This document shows, piece after piece, positions 1 through 9,219 of a stretch of DNA of 64,000 nt. Position 1 is the stretch's first letter. Each line of letters starts with the position of its first letter. This stretch comes from Flagellimonas sediminis. Its GTDB lineage: Bacteria > Bacteroidota > Bacteroidia > Flavobacteriales > Flavobacteriaceae. Both the position numbers and the translations under genes were made by a program. Under the pieces are notes generated by a model, which saw only the letters and a program-made list of their open reading frames with translations, did not search any database and had not been told where the DNA came from. Where the stretch lies: positions 186,001 through 250,000 of the forward strand of contig NZ_JAAAMI010000005.1 in the NCBI RefSeq assembly GCF_010500845.1, given 5' to 3'.

Positions 1-1295
1 AAGATGGGTTCTGGCAAAGCCTTTTTTGCCTTTGCCCCCATGGTACGCAACTTTTCAATGCTTGTGATGATATTGCCACGGCCATCGAACAATTTGTTCA
101 TGGCATTCTTGTATTCCCCCTTGGCATCGTCCATCTTTTTGCCCACTTGGGTCAAGTCGTTCATAAAACCGACGAACTTATCATAGAGTGCCCCGGCTTG
201 TCGAGCAATTTCCATAGCGTTCCGTTGTTGCTTTTCATTGCTCCACATAGAATCTATGGTACGCAAGGTGGCCAATAGGGTGGAAGGGGTGACAATGACG
301 ATATTCTGTTCAAATGCTTTGTTGTAAAGGGAATTGTCCTCGTTTATGGCGATGGCAAAAGCGGGTTCTATGGGAACAAACATCAATACAAAATCAGGAC
401 TTTCCATTTCGTAGAGGTCCTCGTATTTTTTAGCCGACAGTTGCTCCACATGCCTGCGCAGGGAATTGATGTGGTCCTTCAGGAATTTGGGTTTGTCCTC
501 ATCCGGGGCATTTACAAACCGCTCGTAATCGGTTAACGATACCTTGGAATCCACCACCATTTTCTTTCCATCGGGCAGGTGGATGATTACATCGGGCATG
601 ACCCTGCTACCATCTTCCCGTTTAAAGTTTTGTTGTATGCTATACTCCCTATCTTTTTCTAAACCAGACTTTTCCAAAACGCGTTCTAGGACCAATTCTC
701 CCCAGTTCCCCTGCATTTTGCTATCGCCTTTCAGCGCCTTGGTGAGGTTTTCCGCCTCTTGGGTGATTTTCAAATTCTGGCTTTGTAGGTTCAAGAGTTG
801 TTCCCTTAATGCTGAATGTATGCTAATGCTCTCCTTTTGGTTTTCTTCCACTTTCTTTTCAAAAAGCTGGATTTTTTCTTGGAGAGGGCTCAAGATGAGT
901 TTGATGTTCTTCTGGTTCTGTTCCGTGAACTTGGTACTTTTTTCATCCAGGATCTTATTGGCCAGATTCTCGAACTCCTTGGTGAACTTTTCCTGAAGTT
1001 TTTCCACTTCTTCTTTCTGTTCACCATTGATGCGTTGTAAGTATTCCATTTCGGCCTGAAACCGTACCAACTGGTTTCCCTGTTGTTCTTTTTCCCGCTG
1101 AAGTTCTTTTTTTTCCTCATCGGTGAGCAGTAATTTATCATTCAGGGATTTAATGGCGTTGTTGAGTTGGTGTTCCCTTTCGTTCCAAACACCTTCGGTG
1201 GATTTGGTCTTCAATTTTTGGATGTACATGCCTCCGAACAGTCCAAGGGTCAAAGTGATTATTCCGATGATGATGTATACTAATTCAACACTCAT
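1..1295 (-). CDS. rmuC: DNA recombination protein RmuC (3' end beyond window)
   Basis: The reading frame on the minus strand opens with ATG at 1295 and is still open at base 1, so only about 431 N-terminal residues are seen. It starts with a hydrophobic membrane anchor (VELVYIIIGIITLTLGLFGG), continues as a long Glu/Lys/Gln-rich coiled coil to about residue 190, then enters the conserved RmuC nuclease-like domain with GNWGELVLERVLE, MPDVIIHLPDGK, VVDSKVSLTDYERF and FVPIEPAF. RmuC proteins are known to limit DNA inversions and are linked to the PD-(D/E)XK nuclease fold; the biochemical role here is inferred from family. The upstream gene on the same strand is the reverse transcriptase, 42 bp away. 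Confidence 0.93.
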   Translation of the reverse strand, partial: MSVELVYIIIGIITLTLGLFGGMYIQKLKTKSTEGVWNEREHQLNNAIKSLNDKLLLTDEEKKELQREKEQQGNQLVRFQAEMEYLQRINGEQKEEVEKLQEKFTKEFENLANKILDEKSTKFTEQNQKNIKLILSPLQEKIQLFEKKVEENQKESISIHSALREQLLNLQSQNLKITQEAENLTKALKGDSKMQGNWGELVLERVLEKSGLEKDREYSIQQNFKREDGSRVMPDVIIHLPDGKKMVVDSKVSLTDYERFVNAPDEDKPKFLKDHINSLRRHVEQLSAKKYEDLYEMESPDFVLMFVPIEPAFAIAINEDNSLYNKAFEQNIVIVTPSTLLATLRTIDSMWSNEKQQRNAMEIARQAGALYDKFVGFMNDLTQVGKKMDDAKGEYKNAMNKLFDGRGNIITSIEKLRTMGAKAKKALPEPI

Positions 1296-1337
1296 TTTTC
1301 TAGAATCTATTATTAAGTAAAAGTAGAGAAAATCCTA

Positions 1338-2918
1338 TTACTGACTTTGTATCTTTCTAACGTTACTATAATCATATTCAGTTAGAGTATTTCTGAGAAT
1401 GACAGAATGACGGCGTAACTGTTTTTTGATTTCTGGGGCCTCCATTATATCGGAAGCCGAGTAAGCATATTTTATAAAGTTACCTCTGTATTTTCTTTTG
1501 AAACTTTTTGGGATTTGTGAGCCGTTCCTCAACTCTATTCTTTTAGTCGGAATTCTTCTGGATTGTGTTCCTTTATGGCTGTACAGCCGATATATTTTAG
1601 TTTTAAAAATTGGGGCTTCATCCAGTAAATATTTTTCTTTGATACTATTTACCCTTGCATCCTTCCTTTTAATAGCCATTTTCATTTCTCTATAGAAGGT
1701 TGCAAGATTTTTTGATTTTATTAAAGTTTGATAACCATAAAATTCAAACCCCAAATAACATAGCGGGTGGTTAAATTTTAGCTCATCTTCATCTAATCGA
1801 AAGGATTGTAGTCTACCTTGATATTCTTTAAAAATGGTCACTTCCTTTTTTTCAACAGAAATTTTAAGTTTGATTTTCCTAATCTCCTCACCAATTGTTT
1901 TGACCACCTGCTCTATTTCATCCAAATTACAAATCAGGACTATATCATCAGAATATCTACGGTAAAACATTCTCTTTCCTTTGACAAGACTTTCAATAAT
2001 ATTAAAATCAAAAGGAAGCATATAAATATTAGCTAACAAAGCACTTATTGGAAGCCCTTGAGGAATTCCAACAGTTGCTCCGTCTTTTTTCTTTTGATTT
2101 TTATGAATTACGATATCCGAGTTTACTAAATCCTTTATTGATTTAAAGTATGTATCCCTACCTTCCTTTCGTAACTGTGCAAGTTTTTTCTCGTCAAACC
2201 TTCTCTTACCAACTTTTAAATCACTTAATCTAACATAAGAATAGTTGGTTACAGCCTTGAACAAATTGTAGTGATCTTCGGGTAAAGACTTACAACCAAG
2301 GATTTTGCACCATATGGTCTTCAGCAATTTATGATTTAAACTTGGGAAAAAATTTTCAATATCAAAAGCCAATACCGCACAATTCCCTCTTTGCTTAATT
2401 TCATCGAATACATCTTTGGCAAAGTGTACGTTATTTTTGTGCGTTATACTATCTTTAGTTTTAACTCTTCTATATGCAGTTATTGCCAAATCTAAATCTA
2501 TATCCTTTTTTAAATGCTCTTCATATTTAGGACCAATTATTTTTTGAGTGTAATATGAATAAATATGACTATCAATATGAGTAGAGTACAAAATCTCACG
2601 GATTTTTGTTGTTGACTGAACTCTATTTTTTGATGTTTTTTTATGTGAACGCCGTAACTCGCCATTAAATTCAGAAAGTTTATACCTCCTTTGTTTGATT
2701 TCTTTAAAGATTAATGGGCTGAATGAATGAGTAGTTACCTTATTTTGGTTTTTAATATATTTCTCAACGCCTTTACGGATTCTATTAGGAGTTTTGTTGG
2801 TGAAATGAGGATAAGCTCTTTCCTTAAACCAGTCTTTCTGTTGTATCATGAAAAGTAAAAATGAAGTGGGAAGATAATTATTTCGCTGATTTTCATATGG
2901 ATAAAACCTGACATCCAT
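1338..2918 (-). CDS. Reverse transcriptase, Abi/unknown-group-like (candidate defence RT)
   Basis: 526 residues from ATG at 2918. Reverse transcriptase core motifs are visible: NNVHFAKDVF (about 162-171), motif A FDIENFF with the first catalytic Asp (185-191), motif B GIPQGLPIS (284-292) and motif C YSDD (322-325). About 180 residues precede motif A and about 200 basic residues follow motif C. No retron VTG motif, no group II maturase X/En region and no DGR template/variable repeat pair were recognised. The size, the long N-terminal region and the stand-alone context resemble the Abi and UG/DRT families of phage-defence RTs, but I cannot place it in a named class. It is AT-rich compared with neighbours and is preceded by 415 bp of hairpin-rich DNA on its own strand. 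RT activity is well supported; a defence role is inference. Confidence 0.88.
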   Translation of the reverse strand: MDVRFYPYENQRNNYLPTSFLLFMIQQKDWFKERAYPHFTNKTPNRIRKGVEKYIKNQNKVTTHSFSPLIFKEIKQRRYKLSEFNGELRRSHKKTSKNRVQSTTKIREILYSTHIDSHIYSYYTQKIIGPKYEEHLKKDIDLDLAITAYRRVKTKDSITHKNNVHFAKDVFDEIKQRGNCAVLAFDIENFFPSLNHKLLKTIWCKILGCKSLPEDHYNLFKAVTNYSYVRLSDLKVGKRRFDEKKLAQLRKEGRDTYFKSIKDLVNSDIVIHKNQKKKDGATVGIPQGLPISALLANIYMLPFDFNIIESLVKGKRMFYRRYSDDIVLICNLDEIEQVVKTIGEEIRKIKLKISVEKKEVTIFKEYQGRLQSFRLDEDELKFNHPLCYLGFEFYGYQTLIKSKNLATFYREMKMAIKRKDARVNSIKEKYLLDEAPIFKTKIYRLYSHKGTQSRRIPTKRIELRNGSQIPKSFKRKYRGNFIKYAYSASDIMEAPEIKKQLRRHSVILRNTLTEYDYSNVRKIQSQ

Positions 2919-3100
2919 TTCTGGAACGAACCGTTAGCCGAATTCTCGACTCCAGCTTTGTTCTTACATTGTTCTTACCCTTTGGGCAAGACGCTGAGTG
3001 TACTATTAATAACCTAAATAATATCCAAATGTTTGTAACATTTATCAAATTATCTCGTCTAATAAGTATAGCTTATAGGTCAACCCGAAGGTTCTCAATG

Positions 3101-3152
3101 CTGCTATTGTATGCAGGACTTATAACGTTATACGTGCTGAATACAACAGCAG
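3101..3152 (-). repeat. Long imperfect inverted repeat in RT upstream region
   Basis: Arms CTGCT-A-TTGTAT (3101-3112) and ATACAA-C-AGCAG (3141-3152) pair over 11 bp with one mismatch. The stem continues inward with CAG (3114-3116) against CTG (3137-3139) and is capped by the self-complementary TATAACGTTATA (3121-3132). It is the longest stem of the candidate RNA. Confidence 0.75.
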
Positions 3153-3203
3153 ATACACAATTCCTAATACACATATTTAGTTTAACCCCGAAGGTTTGAT
3201 TAG

Positions 3204-3235
3204 GTGGCTAAATCTTCAAATTGTAGATTTAGCAC
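3204..3235 (-). repeat. 11-bp hairpin in RT upstream region
   Basis: GTG-g-CTAAATCT (3204-3215) pairs with AGATTTAGCAC (3225-3235), leaving a 9-nt loop and one bulged base. No U-run follows on either side, so it does not look like a terminator for the divergent gene. Confidence 0.75.
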
Positions 3236-3333
3236 AATAGTTCAACAAAAGTCGTATCCGAAAATTTAACAAGTATCTATACCCACTTCATTGTAAATAT
3301 AAATATTTCTATTTTTAAGGAAAATACTTTCAA

Positions 3334-4038
3334 ATGGAAAAGCCAAAATTTAATGTAGGTGAACTAGTTGTATTAAAAACACACCCTTTACTTAAGAGTT
3401 ATAGGATTAAGGGAGATGGCAAATTAGTGCCTCCTATTTTACTAGTTAGGGAGGTTTTCATCGAGAGTAAAAAGAAGATAATTTGTGACGATGAGACAGG
3501 TAATGTCATAGCAGAACTAATCAAGTACACTTGTACTTATTTTAATGATGCCAAAAGTGAATTTTTAGAAGTTGTTTTGTATGAATCAATGCTTGATTCT
3601 TTTAGAAACCTTAAGATTGAAAAAATAACTCCGGATGGTATAGTTCAAAAAGATGAAAAAACTATAATTGAAGAAATAGATGGATATAAAACCCCAGAAT
3701 ATAAATACGGAGAAATTTTCCGATTAAAAACAAAGAAGATAGAAATTTATAAAAAACGCTCATCCAAAACATTTAAGGTTATTAAAAATGAAGAAGGGGA
3801 GGAAGTATTGAATCCGAAAGAGTCTGTGCAGTATGTCGTTAATTACACTTCGCCTGATTTTATAGTTTGCGGATTTAAAAAGAATGATGAGAAAAACTCA
3901 CATTATCCAGATGGCAGCTTGAAAAAGATTGTTGCAGAAAACTTATTTAAGATTAAATGGTTCAACCCGTTTCAGCAAAAATTTTCAGAACAATATGTTC
4001 CTGATAGCTTTTTAACAGATAAAATGAAGTTAGATTAA
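3334..4038 (+). CDS. Hypothetical protein with internal duplication
   Basis: 234 residues from ATG at 3334; no family recognised. No signal peptide or membrane helix is seen, so it is probably cytoplasmic. Two halves look like diverged copies of one beta-rich module of roughly 80-105 residues. Copy 1 (about 8-88) has VGELVVLKT, PPILLVREV, VIAE and CTYFNDAKSEFLE..LYESML. Copy 2 (about 125-229) has YGEIFRLKT, PDFIVCGF, IVAE and IKWFNPFQQKFSE..VPDSFL. It is AT-rich like the reverse transcriptase, is divergent from it, and shares its 415-bp upstream region, so it may belong to the same acquired cassette. It converges on btuD with a 2-bp gap. Function is unknown. Confidence 0.8.
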   Translation: MEKPKFNVGELVVLKTHPLLKSYRIKGDGKLVPPILLVREVFIESKKKIICDDETGNVIAELIKYTCTYFNDAKSEFLEVVLYESMLDSFRNLKIEKITPDGIVQKDEKTIIEEIDGYKTPEYKYGEIFRLKTKKIEIYKKRSSKTFKVIKNEEGEEVLNPKESVQYVVNYTSPDFIVCGFKKNDEKNSHYPDGSLKKIVAENLFKIKWFNPFQQKFSEQYVPDSFLTDKMKLD

Positions 4039-4040
4039 AC

Positions 4041-4820
4041 TTACTTAGTTATTTTAAACGAACCGGTCTTGGCATCAAATTGAACCATTTCCGAAGGAAA
4101 CAGCTTTTCAAAATGGTTTTGTTCAATCAGTTCACAAGGTGCACCGAAGGGGTTGTTGTTGCCATCCAAAATCAAGATTTTATCACACAATTGTATGGCC
4201 AGTTCTATCTCGTGGGTAGTGAAAAGGACGGTTTTTTGTTGGTCATGTGCCAATTGCTGTAACATTTTCAAAATCTGAACTTTGTGGTACAAATCTAGAT
4301 GGGTGGTCGGCTCATCCAGTAAAATAATGGGGGTATCCTGTGCCATAGCTCTGGCAATCAGTACACGTTGCAATTGACCGTCGCTCAACTCGTGGCACTT
4401 CCGATGTTTGAGGTCATTGAGCAAAAAGGCATCCAAAGAAATTTGGATATGTTTTTCGTCTTCGGGAGACAAGGTGCTCAACCAATTGGTATAGGGCTGT
4501 CTTCCCAAAGCGATGAGTTCGAGCACCGTCAAGTTTTTGGATGCAGGAGGCTCTGTTAACACCACACTGAGTTTTTTGGATAGGTCCAGAGGAGAATAAA
4601 GGTCCAATTCCTTATCATGTAGCTTGATGTTTCCCGATAATTTAAATTGGAACTTTCCCATGGTACGCAGCAATGTTGACTTGCCAATGCCATTGATTCC
4701 CACGATGGCGCAAAGGGTGCCTAGTTCCAAGTCAAAATTAATGTGTTCGCCCACCAGATTTTTCCCATAACCAATTGATAGGTTACATACCGAAAGACTT
4801 TTTTGAACCCTTTTTTCCAT
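4041..4820 (-). CDS. btuD: Cobalamin-type ABC transporter ATPase
   Basis: 259 residues. ABC ATPase of the FecE/BtuD class with Walker A GINGIGKS (41-48), signature LSDGQ (145-149; usual LSGGQ with the first Gly replaced by Asp), Walker B IILLDEP (165-171), D-loop HLD and switch His in FTTHE. It would power import through BtuC at the inner membrane. Its ATG overlaps the btuC stop by 1 nt (TGATG), so the two are translationally coupled. The nearby B12 riboswitch and btuB favour cobalamin as the substrate, but FecE-type siderophore ATPases look almost the same. Confidence 0.9.
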   Translation of the reverse strand: MEKRVQKSLSVCNLSIGYGKNLVGEHINFDLELGTLCAIVGINGIGKSTLLRTMGKFQFKLSGNIKLHDKELDLYSPLDLSKKLSVVLTEPPASKNLTVLELIALGRQPYTNWLSTLSPEDEKHIQISLDAFLLNDLKHRKCHELSDGQLQRVLIARAMAQDTPIILLDEPTTHLDLYHKVQILKMLQQLAHDQQKTVLFTTHEIELAIQLCDKILILDGNNNPFGAPCELIEQNHFEKLFPSEMVQFDAKTGSFKITK

Positions 4821-5851
4821 CAGAACAGCATTTTACGTTTTCGGACCAATAGCCAAATTACAACAGGAGCCCCGACCAAGGAGGTAATGGCATTAATGGG
4901 CAGCACACTGGCCGAATTGGGCCATTGTGCCAAGGTATCGCATAAGAGCATCAAAATAGCGCCATAAAGAAACACGGCCGGAATCAGCACTTTATGTTCC
5001 ATAGTGTCGAATATTTGCCTGGTAAGATGCGGAACCGCCAATCCCACAAATGCAATGGGGCCGGCAAAGGCAGTAATTCCGCCAGCCAAAATCCCTGTGG
5101 CAATAATGATGACCAATCTCGTTTTTTTTAGGGAAACCCCGAGACTCTGGGCATAATGTTCTCCCAATAGAAAAGCATTCAAGGGTTTCAGGGAAACGAT
5201 ACTGAGCAAAAGTCCAACAAATACAATACCCGTCAATAGAACAATTTGATGGGGGGTTAGGTTGCCCACGCTTCCGAAGGACCAAAAAATGAACCGTTGC
5301 AAGCTTTCGGCACTGGAGAAATAAGCTAGGACACTCACAATTGCCGAGGTGATGCTGCCGAACATCAGCCCAATGATCAAAAGCGCCATGGTATCCTTTA
5401 CCTTTTGTGCCACGATCATCACCACGGAAAGTACCAAAAAACTGCCCACACTAGCTGCCAAAGCCAAGGAAACATCTCCCAAGAACGAAAAGGATGCTAT
5501 TCCTGTAAACAAAGTCATGCCCATAAGTAGAAGAGCGGCTCCCAAACTTGCCCCGGAACTGATACCCAACACAAAAGGCCCGGCCAAAGGATTTCGGAAC
5601 AAGGTTTGCATCAACAGGCCACTTAATGACAGTCCACCGCCTACCAAAATTGCGGTAAAAGTTTTTGGCAATCGGTAGTTCCAAACAATGTAGCTCCATG
5701 CCTCTACTTTAGGGTTACCGCCAAAAAGGATAGAAAAGGTTTCTTCAAAGGGAATGTGAACCGATCCGGAACCGATGTTCAATATCCAAGAACACAACAA
5801 TGCCAGACCAATCAGGATAAAGGAAATATGATATGACCTTGGGTGCTGCAT
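4820..5851 (-). CDS. btuC: Cobalamin-type ABC transporter permease (FecCD family)
   Basis: 343 residues, the usual length for BtuC/FhuB-type permeases, with about ten hydrophobic segments. Family motifs include NYRLPKTFTAILVGGGLSLSG near residue 60, NPLAGPFVLGISSGASLGA near 90, and GPIAFVGLAVPHLTRQ near 265, the loop that contacts the ATPase. It forms the inner-membrane channel of the uptake system. It starts directly after the btuF stop and overlaps btuD by 1 nt, giving a btuF-btuC-btuD operon. Substrate is inferred from context. Confidence 0.92.
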   Translation of the reverse strand: MQHPRSYHISFILIGLALLCSWILNIGSGSVHIPFEETFSILFGGNPKVEAWSYIVWNYRLPKTFTAILVGGGLSLSGLLMQTLFRNPLAGPFVLGISSGASLGAALLLMGMTLFTGIASFSFLGDVSLALAASVGSFLVLSVVMIVAQKVKDTMALLIIGLMFGSITSAIVSVLAYFSSAESLQRFIFWSFGSVGNLTPHQIVLLTGIVFVGLLLSIVSLKPLNAFLLGEHYAQSLGVSLKKTRLVIIIATGILAGGITAFAGPIAFVGLAVPHLTRQIFDTMEHKVLIPAVFLYGAILMLLCDTLAQWPNSASVLPINAITSLVGAPVVIWLLVRKRKMLF

Positions 5852-7009
5852 TTACTCTAGGGGTTTGATAAAGCGGAGTTGGTGGTTCGGGAGCAATTCT
5901 GGGTGCAGAATGGCAATAAAGTCCTGAAGGACGATATCGGGCCGTTGGGGTGCTTGTTCATAAAAGAGCAGCCCTCCTTTAGCGCCTTTTTCAATAGCGT
6001 TGGAATAGATTTTTTTATTGGAAAAAGCTGCAAACTCTTTGTGGTGGGCATTCACGCTTTCCAATTCGGCGTAGGAAGTGTGAGATGAAGGATTGAACCA
6101 AAAATCCGCTTGCTGCCCTTTTTCCAGAACTGATTCCAAACTCAAACCAATGCTGCCCGTCTCTGGCCCCCCTGCCCACAAATAATCGGCATTGGCATCT
6201 TCAAGAAATTGGGCCATCCAACTTTTTCCGCCCGCCACGTACCACACATCCTTGTACAATCCGCCAGTAATTACCGTAGGTTTTTGGGTTGCTTTTTTTG
6301 CCAGGTCCTTCGCTTGAAGATAGGAAGATTCAATGCTTTTAAAAATACTGTCCGCTTTAGCCTCCTTTTGAAAGAATGGAGCGAAAAACTTGATCCACTC
6401 CGCCTTGCCCAACGGGGTCTGTTCTACCCAATCTCCGTTGTAGACCACAGGTATGCCAGCCCGTTTTATAACGTCGTAGGCATTATTGTCCTCGTTGATG
6501 CTGAACCCTATGATGAGTTCGGGGTTGAGTACCAACACCATTTCCGTATTGATGACCTCGTTCATGCCCAAATCCTTTATCTGGCCTTCATCCACTCGTT
6601 TTCTGCCGGCAGGGGAGGAAATATAATCGGTATCGGGAAAACCGACCAACGTTTTGAGTTCCCCCAATGCTTCAATAGCAGCAATGTGCGTGGTGGATGT
6701 AACCACAATTTTCTCTACTGGTGTGCCCACAATGGCATCATATTCCCCTTTTGGGAAGGTCATGGCAGCCAATTTTTCCTTTGGAACCAAGGCATACTTG
6801 TAATGGGTATTGGCGCCAACCCAAGGTTGGGTCACTTCCAAAACGGTATAGTCCTCCAACTTTTGAACAGTAAAGCCCTGAGCATAGGTGATGCTCGATT
6901 TTGATGCTTCAGGCTGGGAAATATCTGCGCTTTGATTCTCTTTGCATTCAACAAACAAGGTGCAAAAAAGGAACAAAACCCATGCTGTAATATGATGTTT
7001 GCGTACCAT
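5852..7009 (-). CDS. btuF: Cobalamin-type ABC transporter substrate-binding lipoprotein
   Basis: 385 residues with a type II signal peptide ending in LFVEC (Cys about 22). The body matches periplasmic-binding proteins of the BtuF/FecB class: VEKIVVTSTTHIAAIEALG, then NPELIIGFS, then AGIPVVYNGDW. It should capture the ligand delivered by the TonB receptor and pass it to BtuCD. First gene of the minus-strand operon. The 70-odd bases between its start and the riboswitch on the other strand hold no second aptamer, so this operon does not seem to be under riboswitch control within the window. The likely ligand is cobalamin; a ferric siderophore is the alternative. Confidence 0.88.
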   Translation of the reverse strand: MVRKHHITAWVLFLFCTLFVECKENQSADISQPEASKSSITYAQGFTVQKLEDYTVLEVTQPWVGANTHYKYALVPKEKLAAMTFPKGEYDAIVGTPVEKIVVTSTTHIAAIEALGELKTLVGFPDTDYISSPAGRKRVDEGQIKDLGMNEVINTEMVLVLNPELIIGFSINEDNNAYDVIKRAGIPVVYNGDWVEQTPLGKAEWIKFFAPFFQKEAKADSIFKSIESSYLQAKDLAKKATQKPTVITGGLYKDVWYVAGGKSWMAQFLEDANADYLWAGGPETGSIGLSLESVLEKGQQADFWFNPSSHTSYAELESVNAHHKEFAAFSNKKIYSNAIEKGAKGGLLFYEQAPQRPDIVLQDFIAILHPELLPNHQLRFIKPLE

Positions 7010-7082
7010 GGTCCCAAAAGTAAGATTATTTAACTTTTGCCAAAAAAGATTAAACAGATTGATTACTTTCGTGCCGAATTTA

Positions 7083-7272
7083 GGTTCATGCAGGGATTCA
7101 TTCTTGTATGATTAAAAGGGAATCCGGTGTAAATCCGGAGCTGTTCCCGCAACTGTAAGTCCATGCCAAATTTATTTGGCACCCCTTTGGGGATGTTGCT
7201 TTCTTCAAAACCACTGTTCGGTCATCGGATGGGAAGGTGAGGCAACATAAAACGAGCCAGGAGACCTGCCAA
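7083..7272 (+). promoter_or_regulatory. Cobalamin (AdoCbl) riboswitch aptamer
   Basis: Class hallmarks are present in order. The closing-stem strand GCAGG (7090-7094) pairs with CCTGC (7265-7269). The core lies at about 7118-7158 with GGGAATCCGGTG, AAATCCGGAGCTG and CCCGCAACTGTAAG. An extended hairpin follows (TGCCAAA/TTTGGCA and CCCC/GGGG), and the B12 box GAGCCAGGAGACCTGCC ends at 7270. Located 85 bp before btuB on the same strand; it should reduce BtuB synthesis when cobalamin is abundant. Confidence 0.96.
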
Positions 7273-7290
7273 ATTCAAACAAACAATGTT

Positions 7291-7353
7291 AAACTTTCGG
7301 GATAAAAGTTTACGTATGGAAGCCATACTATTCTCCCGTTTATTCACGTAAAC
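7291..7353 (+). promoter_or_regulatory. Likely riboswitch expression platform with alternative hairpins
   Basis: Between the aptamer and the btuB ATG lie two mutually exclusive structures. AAACTTT (7291-7297) pairs with AAAGTTT (7305-7311). GTTTACGT (7308-7315) can instead pair with ACGTAAAC (7346-7353), which ends 3 nt before the ATG. A third hairpin, GTATGG/CCATAC (7314-7328), competes with the second. No U-run follows, so control is more likely at translation start than by termination. The switching model is inference. Confidence 0.5.
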
Positions 7354-7356
7354 GAA

Positions 7357-9219
7357 ATGAAAAAAAATCATTTTTGGTTTGTGGCCGCTTTATTGGCGGG
7401 CAAGGGACTTTTTGCGCAAAATGTACTGCAAGACTCCCTAAAAGTGCACCAACTCAACGAAGTGGTGGTAAGCGATTCAAAATTTGAATTGAAAAGGGAA
7501 AACTCTGGGAAAACGGTGATCAAGATCACGGTCCAGGAGTTGGAACGTAACCAGGGCAAAACAATTGCCGAAATCATCAACACCAAAAGCGGTATCGAGA
7601 TTACCGGAAGTCGCGGACGCGATGGCGATGTCTTGGGCGTTTATGCCAGAGGTGGCCGAGGTAGACAGGTGTTGATCATTATTGATGGGGTCCGGGTGTC
7701 CGACCCATCGTCTTTTTCCCAAGAATATGACATGAGATTGCTTTCCCCCTCGAACATTGAATCCATTGAAATCATTAAAGGGGCAGCGAGCACACTCTAT
7801 GGAACCAATGCCGCTACGGCTGTGATCAACATCGCCACGAAGAAAAGCTCCAAGGAAAAGATGGCAGGGAACTTTCAAACCAGTATTGGTACCAATCAAA
7901 CCACTGACGATCAAAATTACAATTTGGGAAGCATCAGCAATGCCGTCAATGTGAACGGTACCTTGAACAAGTTCAAGTACGCCGTTGATTTTGCAAACCG
8001 ATATAAAAGTGGCTTGTCCGCAGCGGTCACCCCGCAAAATGAAGAGGACATCTTTTCCCATTACAGTACCAATGTGAGGTTAGGGTATGCATTTTCAAAA
8101 GATTTTGAAGTTTCGGTCTATGGAAACCAAACCAAGTTCAGTAATGAATACGATGCTTCATATGCCGATGCATCTAATATTGGAAAGAGTGAGCAGAAAC
8201 GGGCTGGCTTGTCATCTTCGTTCACTTATGGAAAAGGGTCGGTTCATTTGAATACCGCTTATACGGATTATGAAACCAACTCCAAAGACAGCTATGGTGA
8301 AAGCACCACCAAAGGAAAGAACTGGGTTTTGGATCTTTACAACAAATATACCCTCGGAAAACAGTGGCATACCATACTGGGGGTAAACTACATTAAAGAT
8401 GAAGCGGTATTTGCGGAAGATGCCCGGTTTACCATTGTGGACCCTTACGCCAATGTGGTCTATGTTTCCAATTTTGGCCTTAACCTGAACGTAGGTGGAC
8501 GATTGAACCACCATTCCGAATATGGGAATCATTTGGTGTACAATGTGAACCCGTCTTTCGTTTTTCCTACCCCAAAGGGATATGTAAAAGTGCTGGGTTC
8601 CTATGCTACATCCTACATCACGCCAAATCTGACCCAATTGTTCGGGGCTTTTGGTGGCAACCCGGATTTGAAACCCGAGGAAAACCGGACCTTGGAAGGT
8701 GGTCTGGAATTTAAGTTGAACACCAAACTGCGGTTCAGCACAGTATATTTTGACCGAAACGAGAAGAATACCATTGGTTACGACGTGAACTATACCAGTA
8801 TCAATCTGGCGGATGAAATCAATGCCAATGGGGTAGAGGTGGAAGCGGTTTGGTCGCCATTAGGTTCTTTGAGCGTTGATGCCAATTACACCTTCACTGA
8901 ACGAAAAGGGGACAATGCAATCCGGATCCCTAAACATAAGGCCAATGTTTCCGTGGGTTACCAGTTGGGGCAGGCCACCAATTTTTCCTTGACCTATGCG
9001 TATACCGGAGCACGTTTTGATACGGACTTCACGACCTATACGGATGTGGCCCTGGATTCTTTTTCCTTGGTGAATTTTTACGTGGGACATGAGCTGATTC
9101 CCAATAAACTGAATGTTTTCTTTAATGCAGAAAACCTATTGAATGAGAAGTTCACTGAAATTGTGGGGTACACCACAAGGGGAAGGAATTTCCGGATAGG
9201 TATGAACCTAAATTTTTAG
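7357..9219 (+). CDS. btuB: TonB-dependent vitamin B12 outer-membrane receptor
   Basis: 620 residues. Sec signal peptide to about residue 20 (LLAGKGLFAQ), then a TonB-box-like stretch (HQLNEVVVSDSKF), a plug domain with GVYARGGRGRQVLIIIDGVR and IKGAASTLYGTNAATAVINI, and a beta-barrel of about 450 residues ending in the aromatic terminus GRNFRIGMNLNF. The length is near that of E. coli BtuB (about 600). The cobalamin riboswitch directly upstream strongly supports the substrate. It imports B12 into the periplasm using TonB energy, for BtuFCD encoded divergently. A rho-independent terminator follows 6 bp after the stop codon. Confidence 0.95.
   Translation: MKKNHFWFVAALLAGKGLFAQNVLQDSLKVHQLNEVVVSDSKFELKRENSGKTVIKITVQELERNQGKTIAEIINTKSGIEITGSRGRDGDVLGVYARGGRGRQVLIIIDGVRVSDPSSFSQEYDMRLLSPSNIESIEIIKGAASTLYGTNAATAVINIATKKSSKEKMAGNFQTSIGTNQTTDDQNYNLGSISNAVNVNGTLNKFKYAVDFANRYKSGLSAAVTPQNEEDIFSHYSTNVRLGYAFSKDFEVSVYGNQTKFSNEYDASYADASNIGKSEQKRAGLSSSFTYGKGSVHLNTAYTDYETNSKDSYGESTTKGKNWVLDLYNKYTLGKQWHTILGVNYIKDEAVFAEDARFTIVDPYANVVYVSNFGLNLNVGGRLNHHSEYGNHLVYNVNPSFVFPTPKGYVKVLGSYATSYITPNLTQLFGAFGGNPDLKPEENRTLEGGLEFKLNTKLRFSTVYFDRNEKNTIGYDVNYTSINLADEINANGVEVEAVWSPLGSLSVDANYTFTERKGDNAIRIPKHKANVSVGYQLGQATNFSLTYAYTGARFDTDFTTYTDVALDSFSLVNFYVGHELIPNKLNVFFNAENLLNEKFTEIVGYTTRGRNFRIGMNLNF

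What the first reader, a model, noticed from the sequence alone, without database searches (positions are those of the whole stretch)
1338..3333. Stand-alone reverse transcriptase with hairpin-rich upstream region: candidate new defence RT system
Seen: a 526-residue RT with intact FDIENFF, GIPQGLPIS and YSDD, and 415 bp of hairpin-rich non-coding DNA on its own strand upstream. Known: several phage-defence RT systems (DRT2, DRT9, retrons) consist of an RT and a co-encoded structured RNA. Retron hallmarks, DGR repeats and intron features were not recognised. Inferred: this is an Abi/UG-like RT that reverse-transcribes or is controlled by the adjacent RNA. I could not place it in a named class.
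Basis: partly seen in the sequence, partly recalled or inferred. Interest (0 to 1): 0.82.

Follow-up and report, generated by a model that had tools for sequence, protein, structure and literature searches.

The report
DRT2 cassette with hidden repeat gene
A bacterial anti-virus reverse transcriptase of the known DRT2 family sits beside a structured RNA that appears to hide a scrambled gene with no stop codon, readable only after the RNA is copied over and over into DNA; a third, unstudied protein accompanies this branch of the family.

Summary
The RT is real but not of a new class: it is a divergent DRT2 (UG2). It most likely starts at 2849, not 2918, and is not stand-alone. It belongs to a three-part cassette (about 1278-4038, absent from two same-genus genomes): a tandem-YodC protein, a ~440-nt structured RNA and the RT. 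The RNA fold is supported by strong covariation in 24 loci. Between matched anchors (UGUA in the window, GUA in most relatives) lies a 189-nt template whose antisense, read as a head-to-tail concatemer, has no stop codon: 63 codons per repeat, the DRT2 "neo" design. It holds in 25 of 28 loci (window included) and 10 of 13 unrelated template families; 0.19 loci are expected by chance. Differences from Klebsiella DRT2: anchor GUA instead of ACA, 57-64 codons instead of 40, a constant partner protein, and templates that look exchanged as cassettes. The promoter expected at the repeat junction is clear in 8 of 25 loci but not in the window. cDNA synthesis, Neo toxicity and defence are inferred, not shown. 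Verdict: a new variant of a known kind.

The parts
1338..2849 (-). DRT2 (UG2) reverse transcriptase, 503 aa from the likely start ATG at 2849 (listed ORF 1338-2918)
   Evidence: PADLOC Drt2 438.4 bits, E 1e-131; NCBIfam Drt2 354.5 bits, below its 390 cut-off; nearest solved chains are DRT2 entries such as 9lje and 9c0i
2850..3293 (-). Structured non-coding RNA (template plus scaffold); ends approximate
   Evidence: z -5.92; 95.8% of cells paired, 22 of 35 pairs with changes on both sides over 24 loci
3293..3301 (-). Possible -7 box of the RNA's promoter, TATATTTAC (TAnnTTTR type; consensus recalled)
   Evidence: Best match 6 of 6 upstream of the closing stem in 20 of 24 loci; no shuffle control was run
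3274..3292 (-). 5' arm of the RNA's closing stem (11 + 5 pairs in the window's own fold)
   Evidence: homologues pair at the equivalent place, helix 1
2860..2876 (-). 3' arm of the closing stem, just before the RT start codon
   Evidence: helix 1
2928..2933 (-). 3' arm of the helix that encloses the template; its 5' arm is GAACUA at 3238-3243
   Evidence: Helix 2, 95.8% of cells paired
2968..3156 (-). Template unit of 189 nt; read antisense (window + strand) and concatenated it gives a stop-less repeat of 63 codons (proposed neo)
3154..3157 (-). 5' anchor UGUA (GUA in most relatives)
2965..2968 (-). 3' anchor UGUA
3121..3132 (.). Perfect palindrome TATAACGTTATA at the tip of the template hairpin, loop ACGU
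3029..3031 (+). Likely Neo start codon (ATG, residue 21 of the unit)
   Evidence: Met at this place in 6 of 6 units of the window's template family
2936..2951 (-). Scaffold hairpin AGUCGAGAAUUCGGCU, 3' of the template
   Evidence: Helix 5, 98.6% of cells paired
3334..4038 (+). Partner protein, 234 aa: two YodC-like (SH3-like barrel) domains in tandem
   Evidence: PADLOC RTasYodC 299.4 bits; N half against C half probability 96.9, E 1.3e-10; model pLDDT 82.6
1278..4038 (.). Whole cassette; ends approximate, from the empty site in two same-genus genomes

Best explanation
A DRT2-type (UG2) abortive-infection cassette. The RT binds the structured RNA encoded just upstream (RNA fold shown by covariation; binding inferred). 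After phage infection it would copy the 189-nt template bounded by the two UGUA anchors and, when the cDNA end reaches the 5' anchor, re-anneal it to the identical 3' anchor and go round again, making tandem-repeat cDNA (inferred from DRT2). Second-strand synthesis and transcription would then yield a repeated, stop-less frame of 63 codons per repeat, translated into a hydrophobic, probably helical Neo protein that arrests the infected cell (frame shown; expression and toxicity inferred). The YodC-type partner probably tunes or licenses the system, at the level of the RNA, the cDNA or its transcription, and is less likely an antitoxin matched to Neo (inferred).
For: RT family. Tree: all 41 partner-bearing rows lie on one side of a branch with SH-aLRT 99. 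RNA fold. Neo test at homologous anchor positions: 25 of 28 distinct loci have unit length divisible by 3 and a stop-less antisense concatemer; 0.19 expected from dinucleotide shuffles; 3 of 28 open on the sense strand. Scan of alignment column pairs that was not given the anchors: the GUA pair is best of 51 (18 of 19 anchored loci pass; next best 9 of 16). 13 unrelated template families, 10 pass. Frame class relative to the anchors differs between families, with at least 9 changes on the RT tree among 23 rows, while length stays a multiple of 3, which a linear antisense ORF would not require. Check on viral DRT2 loci: ACA to ACA, 117 nt, antisense open in 4 of 5. Neo residues ILVFMW 47.6% against 36.6% in the other frames.
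Against: No cDNA, RNA or phenotype data. The window's own junction has no clear promoter (5 of 9, p 0.51). Anchor identity is not absolute: 18 of the 25 passing loci share all 3 nt. Three divergent loci (L008-L010) fail at the fixed positions. Purifying selection on the repeat is weak, dN/dS 0.33-1.29 over all pairs tested. The NCBIfam Drt2 score is below its cut-off. In the viral check a 105-nt ACA pair also passes and the sense strand is open too.
Confidence: 0.8

Rival explanations
1. DRT2-like repeat cDNA is made, but the active product is the DNA or RNA itself (DRT9 makes toxic homopolymer DNA and DRT10 tandem-repeat cDNA, PMC12632851, passages seen), and the open antisense frame is incidental.
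For: The window's junction promoter is weak; dN/dS is often near 1.
Against: Stop-less frames in 10 of 13 unrelated template families at about 0.4-4% shuffle probability each among the passing loci, before the length condition; hydrophobic bias; 8 of 25 loci have a good junction promoter.
Confidence: 0.12
2. The antisense frame is an ordinary linear small ORF, for example a toxin, overlapping the RNA.
For: The frame runs past the unit on both sides in the linear DNA: window 19 codons before and 13 after.
Against: Unit length stays a multiple of 3 although the frame relative to the anchors differs between template families; openness extends upstream of the likely start codon to the junction; the variable stretch begins within 10 nt of the 5' anchor and ends at the 3' anchor.
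Confidence: 0.05
3. The partner is the effector or a Neo antitoxin, so the mechanism differs from two-part DRT2.
For: Present in 41 of 41 clade rows and not found in 32 of 32 other rows of the tree.
Against: Partner similarity does not follow template type in the five loci compared: L013-L017, 73% with unrelated templates; L015-L017, 43% with the same template family. No catalytic family or fold recognised: (weak barrel matches only).
Confidence: 0.2
4. Group II intron or retron reverse transcriptase.
For: Shared RT core.
Against: group_II_RT_mat 64.9 bits against a 300 cut-off, retron St85 59.5 against 235; no Rfam match reached its gathering score in 1200-4200.
Confidence: 0.01

Closest known systems
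Klebsiella pneumoniae DRT2 (PMC11100668: outline with abstract, sections 7, 8, 10, 11 and found passages read; PMC12039810: outline with abstract, section 4 parts 1-2 of 3, and section 10 read; PMC12596737: outline with abstract and section 17 read)
   Same: UG2 RT, upstream structured RNA, template between matched short anchors, unit a multiple of 3, stop-less antisense concatemer, hydrophobic repeat
   Different: Anchor GUA/UGUA instead of ACA; 63 codons (57-64 in relatives) instead of 40; RT of 503 aa instead of 425; constant YodC partner; templates apparently exchanged between loci
PADLOC RTasYodC and RTasWYL-YodC (RT-associated protein models)
   Same: The partner matches RTasYodC at 299 bits; 3 of 3 sister-clade partners scanned match RTasWYL-YodC at 342-357 bits
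   Different: The models carry no mechanism; the searches listed no paper holding YodC together with a DRT (both show only the best 15 of their hits)
DRT2 on viral contigs (L035-L038)
   Same: Same hidden-gene design by the same test
   Different: ACA anchors, 117-nt unit, no YodC partner found, longest palindrome in the template 4-6 nt

Membership tests
DRT2 | RT of the UG2/Drt2 family | tested here: met
   PADLOC: two Drt2 models 438 and 316 bits, next other family 83; tree with viral DRT2 as outgroup
DRT2 | NCBIfam Drt2 equivalog cut-off (390 bits) | tested here: not met
   354.5 bits: a divergent member, so this model would not name it automatically
DRT2 | Intact catalytic motif (Y-x-D-D) | tested here: met
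   YSDD invariant in 10 of 10 aligned RTs
DRT2 | Conserved structured RNA upstream on the RT strand | tested here: met
DRT2 | Template flanked by identical short anchors | tested here: met
   UGUA at both ends in the window; 3-nt identity in 19 of 28 loci at the fixed positions
DRT2 | Anchor sequence ACA | tested here: not met
   GUA in this clade; AUUUA proposed in the sister clade
DRT2 | Unit length divisible by 3 and stop-less antisense concatemer | tested here: met
   189 nt, frame open
DRT2 | Promoter reconstituted across the repeat junction | tested here: inconclusive
   Window 5 of 9, p 0.51; 8 or 9 of 9 in 8 of 25 loci; combined Fisher p 1e-8 treats related loci as independent and sets p of 0 to 0.005
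DRT2 | Phage-triggered concatemeric cDNA, Neo toxicity, defence | not testable with these tools
   Needs experiments
Group II intron RT | Maturase RT profile over its cut-off | tested here: not met
   64.9 bits against 300
Retron | RT over a retron cut-off | tested here: not met
   St85 model 59.5 bits against 235; other retron classes only through PADLOC scores far below Drt2
Diversity-generating retroelement | Template and variable repeat pair | not tested
   No DGR repeat search was run; a DGR reading was set aside on the RT family alone

The most novel reading that the evidence does not exclude
DRT2 in this clade is a gene-writing platform with interchangeable hidden toxins: RT and RNA scaffold stay while the anchor-bounded template is replaced as a cassette, giving unrelated Neo proteins, and each DRT2 clade has its own matched anchor (ACA, GUA, AUUUA). 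A third, constant YodC protein and a self-complementary template loop (possible RNA kissing dimer or cDNA fold-back) add control layers not described for two-part DRT2 in the papers read.
Probability: 0.4. Interest if true: 0.8.

Novelty: new variant of a known kind. Interest (0 to 1): 0.6.

Why it matters
The discovery preprint says that Neo annotation was more challenging in more divergent DRT2 clades, suggesting alternative mechanisms there (PMC11100668, section 10). Whether this clade is among them was not seen: its supplement was not available. Here a divergent Bacteroidota clade appears to keep the hidden-gene design with another anchor and a longer repeat, and to exchange template cassettes. 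That gives a direct way to look for neo genes in other clades and testable predictions: exact junctions, frame and peptide. It also points to a third component kept throughout the clade.

Tried and rejected
Rfam scan of 1200-4200: no match near a gathering score. Pfam on the partner: DUF2158 (YodC) only weakly, in 5 of 10 members, best E 0.014; profile search of the PDB: one hit, E 0.076; fold search: no Foldseek match at E <= 0.001, and barrel-type matches at Z <= 4.5 by VIA-align, which may mean only a common fold. First anchor regex found nothing; later versions missed loci or picked wrong 5' positions before the one used. So the fixed positions were set after seeing data; the scan is the check. 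Clade B also gives candidate anchors (10 of 11 anchored loci pass in a set of 27, sense open in 5) but was not pursued. dN/dS as proof of coding: too weak. A matched antitoxin role for the partner: not supported. Close relatives on phage or plasmid records: 3 phage and 28 plasmid records match, all below 60% identity. One schema error on handing in this report.

Rows dropped: L059, L061, L024 (duplicates of L004, L006, L007) and L001, L012 (the window itself) from the A1 counts; L008, L009, L010 (divergent) and L063 (broken RT) from the RNA alignment A3; L001, L012, L011, L040, L062, L063, L059, L061, L024 from the tree. In the sister clade 7 of 15 loci were given a unit; the other 8 were not assigned.

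Full report
What is there. The window comes from a genome of 4.22 Mb in 30 contigs with a single RVT_1 match; the named relatives are Flavobacteriaceae and other Bacteroidota. The RT frame at 1338-2918 minus carries FDIENFF, GIPQGLPIS and YSDD. PADLOC names it Drt2 (438 and 316 bits with two models, the next other family 83), NCBIfam Drt2 scores 354.5 (cut-off 390), and the nearest solved structures are 9lje, 9c0i and 9lv7, described as DRT2 or RNA-dependent DNA polymerase. The ORFs of 6 of 9 aligned homologues begin at or a few residues before MIQQKDWF, so the ATG at 2849 is the likely start; two tblastn matches reach further upstream. Matches at E <= 1e-40 occur in 22 of 397, 10 of 395, 13 of 395 and 40 of 398 genomes drawn from its family, class, order and one relative's genus.

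The cassette. Across the intergenic stretch lies a 234-aa protein, PADLOC RTasYodC (299 bits). In the RT tree (73 rows) 41 of 41 rows of the window's clade carry this partner, and it was not found in any of the 32 other rows within the flank held (for L031 and L039 less than 650 nt of upstream sequence was held). In a sister clade (15 rows) the partner is longer; the 3 fetched in full match RTasWYL-YodC at 342-357 bits. The partner is a tandem duplication (N half against C half, probability 96.9, E 1.3e-10) with a barrel-like model (pLDDT 82.6; weak barrel matches). In the RT direction it is co-directional in 6 of 28 distinct A1 loci and divergent in 22. Two same-genus genomes without an RT match lack the stretch between rmuC and an ABC transporter: in G384, window 1-1277 and 4039-5479 are 77 nt apart; in G229, 1-1232 and 4043-5398 are 180 nt apart.

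The RNA. 24 upstream regions (of 28 distinct A1 loci; L008-L010 and L063 left out) were aligned. Five helices hold: 95.8% of cells paired against 84.1% in shuffles, 22 of 35 pairs with changes on both sides, covariation score 0.433 against 0.214, 0 of 500 shuffles as high on any of the five measures; sliding the partner strand by 1-3 columns drops pairing to 27-52%. The structure was predicted on the same alignment, which favours it somewhat. A closing stem joins the RNA's 5' end to the stretch just before the RT start codon; in the window its own fold gives 11 + 5 pairs there. A second helix encloses the template. A TAnnTTTR box precedes the closing stem in 20 of 24 loci, without a shuffle control.

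The hidden gene. In DRT2 the template is copied repeatedly by jumping between identical trinucleotides (ACA), and the antisense of the repeat has no stop (PMC11100668 sections 7 and 8 read; PMC12039810 section 4 parts 1-2 read). Testing this here, at positions 12 or 13 nt after one conserved motif and 17 nt before another, 25 of 28 distinct loci have a unit length divisible by 3 (171-192 nt) and a stop-less antisense concatemer; shuffles predict 0.19 loci; the sense strand is open in 3 of 28. The three misses are divergent loci (L008-L010); for L008 nearby end points do give open units. 19 of 28 loci share 3 nt at both ends (17 GUA, one GUU at both ends in L018, one UUA in L010, which fails the frame test); of the 25 passing loci 18 do. 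A scan over alignment column pairs that was not given the anchors put the GUA pair first of 51 (18 of 19 against 9 of 16). On five viral DRT2 loci the same search gave ACA to ACA, 117 nt, antisense open in L035-L038 and no such pair in L039; in those four a 105-nt ACA pair passed too and the sense strand was also open. 117 nt is the commonest length in PMC12039810. In the sister clade an AUUUA anchor gives units of 144-162 nt, antisense frame 2 open in 7 of 15 loci, sense open in some of them too; the other 8 were not assigned.

Circular, not linear. Relative to the anchors the open frame is class 0, 1 or 2 in different template families and constant within a family, with at least 9 changes on the RT tree among 23 rows, yet length stays a multiple of 3. 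A linear antisense ORF has no reason to keep that. At the level of unrelated template families, 10 of 13 pass; chance for length alone 0.0016, for length and openness about 5e-20 if each family is open by chance at 2%. The frame does also run on beyond the unit in the linear DNA, so openness alone does not settle this point.

The window's own repeat. 63 residues, LFLPFGQDAECTINNLNNIQMFVTFIKLSRLISIAYRSTRRFSMLLLYAGLITLYVLNTTADT. Its template family includes L004, L013, L014, L022 and L048, all with Met at the same place. One linear unit is predicted as a long helix, pLDDT 74, pTM 0.38, from six sequences. Neo frames hold 47.6% ILVFMW against 36.6% in the other frames. dN/dS runs from 0.33 to 1.29 over all pairs tested. 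A promoter of the type TTG, 18-22 nt, TAnnTTTG (consensus recalled) spans the junction with 8 or 9 of 9 matches in 8 of 25 loci, but the window scores 5 of 9, no better than chance.

Template exchange. L013-L017 have RTs 78-83% identical. Ungapped RNA identity is 0.88-1.0 at 30 to 11 nt before the 5' anchor, 0.61 in the last 10 nt before it, 0.27-0.34 inside the template, 0.60 in its last 10 nt, and 0.86-0.96 over 40 nt from the 3' anchor on; further out it falls again, where loop lengths differ. L013 and L014 carry the window's template type while L015/L017 and L016 carry unrelated ones. Partner identity (38-73%) does not follow template type in these five loci, which speaks against a matched antitoxin.

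Palindrome. 19 of 25 units have a perfect palindrome of 10 nt or more in their first 75 nt (11% of mononucleotide shuffles; 3 of 25 in the rest of the unit), mostly centred about 30 nt from the anchor with a self-complementary loop; four viral DRT2 units have 4-6 nt. Its role is open: RNA kissing dimer, cDNA fold-back, or a by-product of hairpin design.

Not shown. RNA and cDNA synthesis, jumping, Neo expression, toxicity, phage defence and the partner's role are all inferences from the DRT2 papers and the anatomy. Paper searches listed nothing on YodC with DRTs; they show capped lists, and supplements and most subscription papers could not be searched.

Noticed in passing
window 12-1338 and 13 related loci (L002, L003, L013-L019, L022, L056, L057, L063): The RT lies directly upstream of rmuC on the same strand (extrapolated gap 51-164 nt in 12 loci, 353 in L003) in the window and in 13 of 27 other distinct A1 loci, across genera: a conserved site or possibly a functional link.
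   Followed up: partly
window 3121-3132 and the template units of A1 loci: Self-complementary tetraloops (UCGA, ACGU, AUAU, UUAA) in template hairpins of otherwise unrelated sequence; in several relatives the palindrome sits just 5' of the junction promoter's TTG.
   Followed up: partly
L063 (G1356): A clade member whose RT frame is broken by several stops while its template unit is still open antisense.
   Followed up: no
clade B loci (for example L072, L074, L042, L027): DRT2 relatives without a YodC partner also show candidate anchors (AUA/UAC) with open antisense units of roughly 140-160 nt.
   Followed up: no
window 4041-9219: Next to the cassette: ABC transporter ATPase, FecCD permease, periplasmic binding protein and a TonB-type receptor, an uptake cluster.
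   Followed up: no
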